This document shows, piece after piece, positions 35,323-38,349 of a DNA stretch of 64,000 nt. The notes below the pieces were generated by a model. The model had not been told where the DNA came from. It did not search any database and saw only the letters and a program-made list of their open reading frames with translations. The first letter of the stretch is position 1, and the number at the start of each line of letters is the position of its first letter. The translations under genes were made by a program, and so were the position numbers. This DNA is from Bacilli bacterium. GTDB lineage: Bacteria > Bacillota_I > Bacilli_A > RF39 > UBA660. The stretch spans positions 1 to 64,000 of the forward strand of contig JAFSEX010000032.1 in the NCBI GenBank assembly GCA_017435465.1. Reading direction: 5' to 3'.

Positions 35323-35931
35323 GTGTATTTAAAATTAGATAATAATAAGCAGATAAAAAAATTTTATAGACTTTTGTCATTATATAAATCTATAATATTT
35401 AAATTTGTTAAATTTAAAACTTCAAACAGTGATAAAAATATAAACCTAATCATAGAAGCTTTAAATATTAAAAATAGAAAAGAAAGAATAACTTTTGTAT
35501 ATGATGAAGCATGTAAGTTAATTGATAATCAAGTTAATGGTAAAAACATCTGTGGATTTGAAAATTGTAAATGTTATACTCAAAGAAATAATAGTTATAA
35601 ATATGGGTGTTTCAGAATGTGTAGATATAAAACTAATAGTGGTTGTTCAACAAAAAATCTTGCTTGTAAATTGTTTAATTGTTCCGAAGTAAAAAAAAGA
35701 TATAAGGTTATAGAATATAGTGATTTAAAAATTCTTAAATTATTAAGCATAAGACAAAGATTTATTGTAAAATCTGATTATTTTACTTTAAGAGAAAATG
35801 TTTTAAAGGATTTATATTCATATAGTTTTATATATTCATCTATTAAAATTATTCTTAGAACAATTATAGATTTTATTCATGTTAAGGCTATTGAAAAAAG
35901 AACAATTAATGGAGGTATTTATGAAAATTGA
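35323..35931 (+). CDS. Cysteine-rich protein, unknown
   Basis: 202 residues, basic. A central block (about 75-125) has ten or so cysteines: ICGFENCKCYTQ, YGCFRMCRYKTNSGCSTKNLACKLFNC, which suggests a metal cluster or zinc site. Similar 'GC-T...L-CKLF-C' blocks occur in Firmicute proteins of unknown role. It starts with GTG (the ATG two bases earlier is out of frame) with only a weak RBS. Its end overlaps the GNAT gene. Confidence 0.6.
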   Translation: MYLKLDNNKQIKKFYRLLSLYKSIIFKFVKFKTSNSDKNINLIIEALNIKNRKERITFVYDEACKLIDNQVNGKNICGFENCKCYTQRNNSYKYGCFRMCRYKTNSGCSTKNLACKLFNCSEVKKRYKVIEYSDLKILKLLSIRQRFIVKSDYFTLRENVLKDLYSYSFIYSSIKIILRTIIDFIHVKAIEKRTINGGIYEN

Positions 35932-36361
35932 ACTTAAAATTTTAGAAATAAAAGATTTAAATAGTTTAAAAGATTTATGTGAAATTTGTTTTGATATTAA
36001 GTCTGATGTAGAGATAATGAAAAAAGAGTATAAAAAAATATTAAATAATCCTAATACTAAACAAATAATTTTAAAATTAGAGAATAAGATTATTGGACAT
36101 ATTAAATATGATATAATTAACGACATTTTTGATATGGGAAAACCTTACATGTATTTATCTGATTTATGTATTCATCCTGATTATAGAGGTAATGGATATA
36201 GTAAATTGTTAATGGATTATTGTGAAAAAGAAGCAATTAATAATAATTGTAAAAATATATTTTTGAATTCAAGTGAATTTAGAGATATTGCACACAAATT
36301 ATATGAAGGACTTGGATATCATATTAGAGATAGTAGAATATATAGAAAAGGATTAATATAA
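35921..36361 (+). CDS. GNAT family acetyltransferase
   Basis: 146 residues. Acetyl-CoA motif A is LCIHPDYRGNGYSKLLMDYCEKEA near residue 80; the C-terminal HKLYEGLGYHIRDSRIYRK is also typical. Substrate unknown. The ATG at 35921 follows GGAGG at a good distance; the frame is open further upstream but those codons overlap the Cys-rich gene. Confidence 0.85.
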   Translation: MKIELKILEIKDLNSLKDLCEICFDIKSDVEIMKKEYKKILNNPNTKQIILKLENKIIGHIKYDIINDIFDMGKPYMYLSDLCIHPDYRGNGYSKLLMDYCEKEAINNNCKNIFLNSSEFRDIAHKLYEGLGYHIRDSRIYRKGLI

Positions 36362-36363
36362 TT

Positions 36364-36759
36364 ATGAAAAGAAAAATAGTATTAACTGGTATTATTAATT
36401 GTAAAGATGAATATTTAATTGTTAAAAGATCAAAAGATGATGATTTCTTACCTGGTGTTTGGGAATTTCCTGGAGGAAATATGAAAGATGACGAATTGAT
36501 ATATGATGCCTTAAAAAGAGAAATGATTGAAGAAATAGGTTTTATAATTAATAACACCAATATAAGACTTGTACACTATTATGATGAAATTAAAAAAAAG
36601 AAAGAAAAGTATCATTATATTGAATTAGATTTTCTTATTAAAGTTGAAAATAAAGATATTGGTATTAAATTAAGTGATGAACATGATGCTTTTTGTTGGA
36701 TTAATAAAGATTCTAATATAATTGATGAATATATAAAAGATAAATTAAATAGTATATAA
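36364..36759 (+). CDS. NUDIX hydrolase, MutT-like
   Basis: 131 residues. The NUDIX box is complete: GNMKDDELIYDALKREMIEE followed by IGF, giving G-x5-E-x7-RE-x2-EE-x-G. Preceded by WEFPGG, as in 8-oxo-dGTP and related nucleotide-cleaning enzymes. Begins three bases after the GNAT gene, so the two are co-expressed. Confidence 0.88.
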   Translation: MKRKIVLTGIINCKDEYLIVKRSKDDDFLPGVWEFPGGNMKDDELIYDALKREMIEEIGFIINNTNIRLVHYYDEIKKKKEKYHYIELDFLIKVENKDIGIKLSDEHDAFCWINKDSNIIDEYIKDKLNSI

Positions 36760-36770
36760 TTATTTTAAAA

Positions 36771-36799
36771 TTGACATAATATATAATTTATGTTAACAT
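36771..36799 (+). promoter_or_regulatory. Promoter of the 395-residue unknown gene
   Basis: TTGACA, 17 bases, TAACAT. Confidence 0.65.
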
Positions 36800-36841
36800 C
36801 ATAATCACTTGGTTGTTAATAAATTTTGAGTGGGGATTATT

Positions 36842-38029
36842 ATGTTTAAAAAAATAGTATTATATAAAGATGTTGTTAATTATATTAATGGTGATATGGA
36901 TTTAGAAACTTCAGAATTAATGGAAAATAATACTAAATTTATGATATCGGTAATTAAGTATACAAGAGATAAAAAGATGTATCAGTTTTGTAGCGATAGA
37001 GTTAAAAAAGATTATGATATGGTAAAATTTATGGTTGAAAAGTTTAGTGATGATATAAACTTCATTTCAAATCTTGCTGATGGATATATTTCTAATAATA
37101 AAACGAATGATGATGATTATACCTATGATGAATTAATTATTTTGATGTCGAAAGTATATAAAGAAAAATATCCAGATGATTTTAATAAATATGCCATTAA
37201 GGCAAATGCTTTTTTATCTTTTAAATTATTTGTAATTGAAGAATTATTTAAAGATCCAAAAATTAAAAATAATTATGGACTTGGTTTTGGGATATTTGAA
37301 ATGGATTATAGTGGTAGCAAAATAATTATGGATTTTGTTGCTAAATCACTTATAGATGAAATTTTTTATGGGGAAGAAAGAGAAAATTTAGAAAAAATTC
37401 TACATAAAAATTATAAAGATTATAATAAAATTACTGAAAAAGGAATAAATACATTTTTAATTAATTATATTAGTACTTTTGATAAATCATTAGCTGGTTA
37501 TGTATCAAATAATATAGAACTTATAAATAGTATTAAAAAACATCTTGAAAGAATAAATAAAAATTGGAATAAATATAATGAAAATCTTAATAATGAAAAA
37601 ATAGAATTTTTTATAGAAAAAATATCTGATTTTAAAGATAATTGTTGTTTTTATAAATATAGTATAGATGATATTATAAATTATATAGTTGATTATTTTC
37701 ATTTGGAGAATATATTTAGTTCGTATTTAAATACTTTAAAACAAATTGATGAATATAGATTATATAATTATAATGATTGTTATGAATGCTCATATGAATA
37801 TGAATTGGAATCAATATTTAACGAATTAACAAATGAATCTAAAAAAATTAATCCTAATGAAATGAATTCTTCAGATTTATTCTTTTTACAAAAGATTATT
37901 AAAATTGCTAGGGAAATATTTATTGAAGATAAATATTTAAATGATGATGAATATATTGACTCTGAAAAAGAAACAAAAATATTAAAATTTCCAGTTAGAA
38001 CTAATATTAATAAATCCATAAGGAAATAA
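36842..38029 (+). CDS. Acidic helical protein, unknown
   Basis: 395 residues, very rich in N, D, K, I, Y, with no signal peptide or membrane segment. No family or motif recognised. Start at the ATG after GTGGGG; a GTG four codons upstream is less well placed. It has its own promoter and lies just before the small peptide unit. Composition matches the host, so recent transfer is not indicated. Confidence 0.6.
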   Translation: MFKKIVLYKDVVNYINGDMDLETSELMENNTKFMISVIKYTRDKKMYQFCSDRVKKDYDMVKFMVEKFSDDINFISNLADGYISNNKTNDDDYTYDELIILMSKVYKEKYPDDFNKYAIKANAFLSFKLFVIEELFKDPKIKNNYGLGFGIFEMDYSGSKIIMDFVAKSLIDEIFYGEERENLEKILHKNYKDYNKITEKGINTFLINYISTFDKSLAGYVSNNIELINSIKKHLERINKNWNKYNENLNNEKIEFFIEKISDFKDNCCFYKYSIDDIINYIVDYFHLENIFSSYLNTLKQIDEYRLYNYNDCYECSYEYELESIFNELTNESKKINPNEMNSSDLFFLQKIIKIAREIFIEDKYLNDDEYIDSEKETKILKFPVRTNINKSIRK

Positions 38030-38047: not shown

Positions 38048-38076
38048 TTGACAAAATGCATAATTTTTGGTAAAAT
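38048..38076 (+). promoter_or_regulatory. Promoter of the 24-codon unit
   Basis: TTGACA, 17 bases, TAAAAT. A hairpin with a GAAA loop, AAAAGGA-gaaa-TCCTTTT (38088-38105), begins about five bases after the expected transcript start. Confidence 0.75.
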
Positions 38077-38122
38077 ATATTTTCATAAAAAGGAGAAATC
38101 CTTTTGATAAGGGGTAAGTATT

Positions 38123-38197
38123 GTGTTGAATATATTTATAAATGTTATTAAAAACGTTAAGATGTGTTATGAAATGTATAACACTTGTTACAAATAA
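38123..38197 (+). CDS. Candidate 24-residue peptide gene with its own promoter and terminator
   Basis: GTG start eight bases after AAGGGG. The peptide is VLNIFINVIKNVKM followed by CYEMYNTCYK (first residue formylmethionine): a hydrophobic first half, two basic residues, then two cysteines. The stop codon is immediately followed by the terminator stem. A second hairpin, GTGTTAT / ATAACAC, lies in its last codons. Alternatively the transcript of about 140 bases is a small RNA. No known family. Confidence 0.45.
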   Translation: MLNIFINVIKNVKMCYEMYNTCYK

Positions 38198-38221
38198 TAG
38201 AGATAATTCTCTATTTTTTTG
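38196..38221 (+). terminator. Terminator of the small unit
   Basis: AATAGAGA / TCTCTATT, four-base loop, then a run of T. It separates this unit from the rplM promoter. Confidence 0.85.
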
Positions 38222-38231
38222 TAATATTTAA

Positions 38232-38260
38232 TTGACTTTAATAGTATGTTTTAGTATAAT
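38232..38260 (+). promoter_or_regulatory. Promoter of rplM-rpsI
   Basis: TTGACT, 17 bases, TATAAT. Confidence 0.8.
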
Positions 38261-38287
38261 TTTAATCGGTACATTTTATTTTATCTA

Positions 38288-38324
38288 AATATTGAAAAAA
38301 CCTTGGGAAAGTTTAATCAATATT
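38288..38324 (+). promoter_or_regulatory. Hairpin in the rplM leader, possible L13 autoregulatory element
   Basis: AATATTG / CAATATT with a 23-base loop that can pair further inside, between the promoter and the RBS of rplM. L13 leaders are known in Bacilli; this assignment is by position only. Confidence 0.35.
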
Positions 38325-38349
38325 GGTAAAAGAAAGGGAAGATTTTATA

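What the first reader, a model, noticed from the sequence alone, without database searches (positions are those of the whole stretch)
38048..38221. Stand-alone 24-codon unit: consensus promoter, RBS, peptide, terminator
TTGACA-N17-TAAAAT, a GAAA-capped hairpin right at the 5' end, AAGGGG, a GTG start, 24 codons with a hydrophobic half and two cysteines, then a terminator that begins at the stop. The next gene has a separate promoter. It could be a short membrane peptide, a type I toxin, a signal peptide or a small RNA of about 140 bases.
Basis: partly seen in the sequence, partly recalled or inferred. Interest (0 to 1): 0.65.

Follow-up and report, generated by a model that had tools for sequence, protein, structure and literature searches.

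The report
Conserved 24-residue peptide gene beside rplM
A tiny stand-alone gene for a 24-residue peptide, probably lying on the inner face of the cell membrane, sits just upstream of ribosomal gene rplM in an uncultured Bacilli lineage; three relatives keep the peptide while their RNA hairpins differ, so it is very likely a real protein gene with no known family, though what it does is unproven.

Summary
At 38048-38221 there is an extended -10 promoter (TTGACA-N17-TAAAAT, TG), an AAGGGG ribosome site, a GTG-started 24-codon frame and an intrinsic terminator overlapping the stop codon; rplM follows with its own promoter and leader. The decisive new evidence is comparative. The same unit stands directly upstream of rplM in three other species: one of the same genus, two of another genus of the family. 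The frame is kept in all four (24 codons in three, 27 in the fourth). Substitutions spare hydrophobic character (above a substitution-matched null in all six pairs, p<0.0002 to 0.048), while the upstream gene and 5' hairpin differ. It has no Pfam or NCBIfam match and was not seen upstream of rplM in the other loci examined. Hydrophobicity follows a helical period without a confident transmembrane span, so I read it as a peripheral amphipathic membrane peptide. AgrD, SpoVM and a type I toxin with cis-antisense RNA are each disfavoured by tests. Function is inferred only. Interest is modest: a new, very narrow microprotein family.

The parts
38048..38076 (+). Promoter of the unit: TTGACA-N17-TAAAAT with TG extension; transcript start about 38083 (inferred)
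   Evidence: 11 of 12 consensus matches; TTTGACAA and an extended -10 recur in all four homologous loci
38088..38105 (+). 5' UTR hairpin with GAAA loop; not conserved
   Evidence: -6.7 kcal/mol, z -1.25; replaced by weak CCC/GGG hairpins in G201 and G068, none in G001
38109..38114 (+). Ribosome-binding site AAGGGG, 8 nt before the start codon
   Evidence: sequence; a G-rich equivalent precedes the start in all four loci
38123..38197 (+). 24-codon gene (GTG start, TAA stop), MLNIFINVIKNVKMCYEMYNTCYK, conserved amphipathic microprotein
38196..38220 (+). Intrinsic terminator whose stem overlaps the stop codon
   Evidence: -9.3 kcal/mol, z -5.2; terminator at the stop in all four loci
38232..38260 (+). 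Separate promoter of rplM (TTGACT-N17-TATAAT); bounds the unit downstream
   Evidence: near-invariant in the four loci
38268..38349 (+). rplM (L13) mRNA leader, neighbouring element, not part of the peptide unit

Best explanation
The unit is a monocistronic gene for a 24-residue microprotein. Shown by sequence: its own sigma-A-type promoter, ribosome site, start codon, frame and terminator, and conservation of frame and hydrophobic pattern in four species of two genera at one syntenic place. Inferred: housekeeping RNA polymerase makes a ~135-nt mRNA. The peptide folds as an amphipathic helix from residue 2 to about 19 on contact with the inner leaflet of the cell membrane. Its hydrophobic side (L2, I4-I6, V8, I9, V12, M14, C15, Y16, M18 in the window copy) dips into the bilayer, and N3, N7, K10, N11, K13 and E17 face the cytoplasm. 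There it acts as a small peripheral membrane factor that adjusts a membrane protein or the lipid surface. The closeness to rplM is a conserved neighbourhood, not a shared transcript, because a terminator and a new promoter separate them.
For: A profile of only the window and G001 peptides picked out G201 (E 3.7e-5) and G068 (E 1.2e-3) among 386 genomes. Both hits proved to lie about 240 nt upstream of rplM, a place the search could not have known. With four members the window hit is E 1.8e-12, and the best other hit in 386 genomes is a partial one at 2.2e-4. Lengths are 24, 24, 24 and 27 codons. Nearly all gaps in the DNA alignment fall in the untranslated parts; the only exception is the C-terminal part of G001. 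BLOSUM similarity exceeds a null with the same substitutions moved at random in all six pairs (p<0.0002 to 0.048); 52-75% of null sequences gain a stop and none of the real ones has one. Differences by codon position, summed over the pairs, are 43, 23 and 48, so the second position, which sets hydrophobic character, is most protected. The joint hydrophobicity profile peaks at 100-120 degrees (p 0.044). Mean hydropathy of 0.7-1.6 is at or below usual transmembrane cut-offs.
Against: No RNA or protein data. Only four members, and only two genera. AT-rich DNA gives I/N/K/F/Y-rich hydrophobic peptides for free, so composition is no evidence, and the amphipathic signal is weak (p 0.044 jointly; G001 alone p 0.30). 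Another strong peak lies at 180 degrees. dN/dS by NG86 is about 0.4 for window against G201 or G068 but about 1.0 for G201 against G068. A third genome of the second genus (G294) lacks it next to rplM, at a contig edge. Membrane binding and target are inference.
Confidence: 0.62

Rival explanations
1. Small regulatory RNA: the ~135-nt transcript acts by base pairing and the frame is incidental.
For: Discrete promoter and terminator; the window transcript has a strong terminator and a 5' hairpin.
Against: The 5' hairpin is absent in G001 and only weak in G201 and G068. Frame, start, stop and hydrophobic pattern are kept. No Rfam family matches.
Confidence: 0.12
2. Type I toxin: a small membrane-damaging peptide silenced by an antisense RNA.
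For: Length, hydrophobicity, strong promoter and terminator resemble such genes.
Against: No antisense promoter over the unit is shared by the four loci. The 5' UTR is short (about 20-40 nt) and only weakly folded. One copy per genome at a fixed chromosomal place; type I toxins are often multi-copy or mobile (general knowledge).
Confidence: 0.1
3. Secreted surface-active peptide: it leaves the cell without a signal peptide and acts on other membranes, working like (not shown to be related to) staphylococcal phenol-soluble modulins.
For: Small, leaderless, amphipathic, with net charge +1 to +5.
Against: No Pfam or NCBIfam match for any of the four members up to E 10. Resemblance is recalled only and expected for any AT-rich amphipathic peptide. 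No exporter was looked for.
Confidence: 0.08
4. Translation-sensitive attenuator of rplM: a ribosome sitting at the stop codon masks the terminator's left arm, so translation of the short frame lets RNA polymerase read through into rplM.
For: In all four loci the terminator stem overlaps or abuts the stop codon, and rplM is always the next gene.
Against: 36% of 28 terminator-bearing genes in these genomes have the same geometry. rplM has its own near-invariant promoter and leader just downstream. Nearly all relatives drive rplM without the unit.
Confidence: 0.05
5. A divergent SpoVM, the 26-residue amphipathic peptide that anchors SpoIVA in sporulation.
For: All six genomes tested encode full-length SpoIVA, and none has a match to the SpoVM Pfam model over its cut-off. 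Size and amphipathicity fit.
Against: The proline at position 9, the only invariant residue of SpoVM (PMC5607322), is missing in all four. The promoter looks like the vegetative type, not sigma-E. The gene was not found in G294 and G002, which also carry SpoIVA (both are incomplete assemblies). The Pfam control also gave sub-threshold hits in unrelated genomes, so absence of SpoVM is not firm.
Confidence: 0.03

Closest known systems
Unannotated conserved microproteins of microbiome bacteria (global smORF catalogue, PMC11364881, and the 4,539 human-microbiome families it cites)
   Same: A sub-30-residue conserved gene without a domain hit, predicted to be membrane associated
   Different: Very narrow: four species in two genera. 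Whether it is in those catalogues could not be checked here
SpoVM (stage V sporulation protein M)
   Same: About 25 residues, predicted amphipathic helix that would lie on a membrane; SpoIVA present in the genome
   Different: No Pro9, no Pfam match, sigma-A-like promoter
AgrD cyclic-lactone autoinducer precursors
   Same: Short, with amphipathic N-terminal half; window copy has cysteines
   Different: No acidic C-terminal recognition tail and cysteine not conserved; each of the three genomes examined has a 42-residue AgrD-like peptide next to AgrB elsewhere
Phenol-soluble modulins
   Same: Leaderless short amphipathic peptides encoded by easily missed frames (named from memory only)
   Different: No family-model match; no letters compared
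Type I toxin peptides (for example Fst/Ldr, TxpA)
   Same: Short hydrophobic peptide with own promoter and terminator
   Different: No conserved antisense promoter, short leader, single copy

Membership tests
Conserved small-protein gene | Frame conserved in relatives beyond chance | tested here: met
Conserved small-protein gene | Transcribed and translated | not testable with these tools
   needs RNA-seq, Ribo-seq or mass spectrometry
SpoVM | Match to Pfam PF08183 | tested here: not met
   No Pfam match for the four peptides; PF08183 over cut-off in none of six genomes
SpoVM | Invariant proline 9 | tested here: not met
   No proline at that place in any of the four; invariance from PMC5607322
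SpoVM | Sigma-E expression | tested here: inconclusive
   Promoter resembles sigma-A consensus; no expression data
AgrD | Adjacent AgrB processing peptidase | tested here: not met
   AgrB lies on another contig (C60) with its own AgrD-like peptide beside it
AgrD | Conserved cysteine and acidic C-terminal tail | tested here: not met
   alignment A2
Type I toxin-antitoxin | Antisense RNA gene overlapping the toxin gene | tested here: not met
   No minus-strand promoter over the unit common to the four loci; a weak non-consensus one is not excluded
Type I toxin-antitoxin | Toxicity on expression | not testable with these tools
   bench test
Phenol-soluble modulin | Match to a curated family model | tested here: not met
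   no family up to E 10; HMMER filters can miss short peptides
Phenol-soluble modulin | Dedicated export and surfactant activity | not tested
   no exporter search made
Small RNA (Rfam) | Match to a known RNA family | tested here: not met
   only chance-level matches

The most novel reading that the evidence does not exclude
The short frame is both a membrane peptide gene and a translation-sensing element: ribosome occupancy of the stop codon would decide whether transcription ends or continues into rplM, tying peptide synthesis to the supply of ribosomal protein L13.
Probability: 0.05. Interest if true: 0.7.

Novelty: new member of a known kind. Interest (0 to 1): 0.33.

Why it matters
It shows that a frame of 24 codons, below the length floor of usual annotation, can be recovered from raw sequence and backed by conservation in uncultured Bacilli. 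It defines a small new microprotein family with a clear experimental handle. It does not by itself change any general picture.

Tried and rejected
DNA-level search of 60 relatives with the whole unit: apart from the window itself only short AT-rich matches, one of which (G001) was real. Profile search of a draw of 385 genomes of the order: nothing beyond the four. Viral contigs: none. Plasmids: none. Rfam on the unit: only chance matches. RNA reading rejected because hairpins vary and frame does not. AgrD, SpoVM and cis-antisense type I toxin rejected as memberships (see table). Terminator-at-stop geometry looked special but is common in these genomes (36% of 28 genes). A 70% match elsewhere in the same genome (G000:C30) overlaps the promoter and 5' part of another gene with no similar peptide.

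Full report
Setting. The window lies in an uncultured, AT-rich member of the Bacilli (GC 0.23-0.31; G000, 1.46 Mb in 65 contigs). The nearest named relatives carrying the unit are metagenome genomes labelled 'uncultured Bacilli bacterium' or 'Bacillota bacterium'.

Observation. The 5' hairpin is only mildly better than shuffled sequence (z -1.25). The terminator is clearly better (z -5.2). The promoter scan alone is weak evidence in such AT-rich DNA (53 sites found, 41 expected), although sites with 11 of 12 matches are rare.

Conservation. I took the regions upstream of rplM in relatives and found the same unit in G001, same genus. A two-sequence profile then found G201 and G068 of another genus. 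Both hits lie at the same place, directly before rplM. The peptides are MLNIFINVIKNVKMCYEMYNTCYK (window), MLNIIISIIKNIRLIFEIYGVSYK (G201), MFEIIVNLIKNIKIIFELYSINYK (G068) and MFSVIINIIKNIKLFCKIKPYNIISNR (G001). The gene upstream of the unit differs: an unknown 399-residue protein in the window, a 428-residue protein that I read as a polysaccharide deacetylase in G001 (by eye, not tested), and two unknown proteins that look related to each other in the second genus. So the unit is independent of its upstream neighbour. About 107 distinct rplM upstream regions were extracted; in the 45 closest, read by eye, no other case was seen, and profile searches of family and order genomes found none.

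Coding test. Moving the observed substitutions at random over the same frame gives lower amino-acid similarity than observed in every one of six pairs (p from below 0.0002 to 0.048), and half to three quarters of these null sequences acquire a stop. The second codon position varies least. Because the four sequences are related, the six tests are not independent. Amino-acid identity alone is not significant; what is conserved is hydrophobic character. The three 24-codon copies align without a gap, while the 5' untranslated parts differ in length. The 5' hairpin is missing in G001 and reduced to three or four pairs in G201 and G068.

Peptide. The joint hydrophobicity profile has a helical period (peak near 110 degrees, p 0.044), with mostly polar residues at 3 and 7, K10, N11, K/R13 and mostly E17 on the polar side. 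Mean hydropathy is at or below the usual transmembrane threshold. I therefore infer a helix lying on the membrane rather than crossing it. This is the weakest step: AT-rich sequence favours I, N, K, F and Y in any case.

Known families. No Pfam or NCBIfam model matches any member. AgrD is excluded because the genomes examined have AgrB with its own 42-residue AgrD-like peptide on a different contig. SpoVM is not supported: the one residue invariant in SpoVM, Pro9 (PMC5607322), is absent and the Pfam model does not match, although all six genomes do encode SpoIVA. No antisense promoter over the unit is shared by the four loci. A resemblance to phenol-soluble modulins is from memory only; those sequences were not fetched or used in any comparison.

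The stop-terminator geometry. In all four loci the terminator stem overlaps or abuts the stop codon, which could let a terminating ribosome influence read-through into rplM. But 36% of 28 terminator-bearing genes in these genomes look the same, and rplM keeps its own promoter and L13 leader. I leave this as the most novel reading at low probability.

Verdict. A real, very narrowly distributed microprotein gene, probably encoding a peripheral membrane peptide. It is a new family of a known kind, of modest interest until expression or a phenotype is shown.

Noticed in passing
window 38268-38349: The rplM leader here and in about 60 relatives shares GGTACAT and a hairpin with a TGGGAAAG-like loop, often with a CCC element before it. 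Stems of at least 7 pairs occur in 75% of leaders against 5% in shuffled controls, with widely different stem sequences. It looks like a diverged L13 leader (compare the RF00555 match in a Bacillus) that Rfam does not recognise in the two family members tested.
   Followed up: partly
G000, G001, G002, G201, G068, G294: All six small uncultured genomes encode full-length SpoIVA at 700 bits or more, yet none has a SpoVM match over cut-off: possible sporulation without a recognisable SpoVM.
   Followed up: partly
L197 1477-2265 (G000:C60): AgrB with an adjacent 42-residue AgrD-like autoinducer precursor; the same pair stands in G201 and G068, with a histidine-kinase-like gene on the other strand (by eye, not tested).
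   Followed up: partly
window 35323-38029: Two unknown proteins (202 and 399 residues, no Pfam match) with an acetyltransferase and a NUDIX gene stand between truA and the unit; in several relatives truA is directly followed by rplM.
   Followed up: no
L097 (G294), first 231 bases: The third genome of the second genus lacks the unit next to rplM; the contig ends there in sequence that may belong to a mobile element.
   Followed up: no
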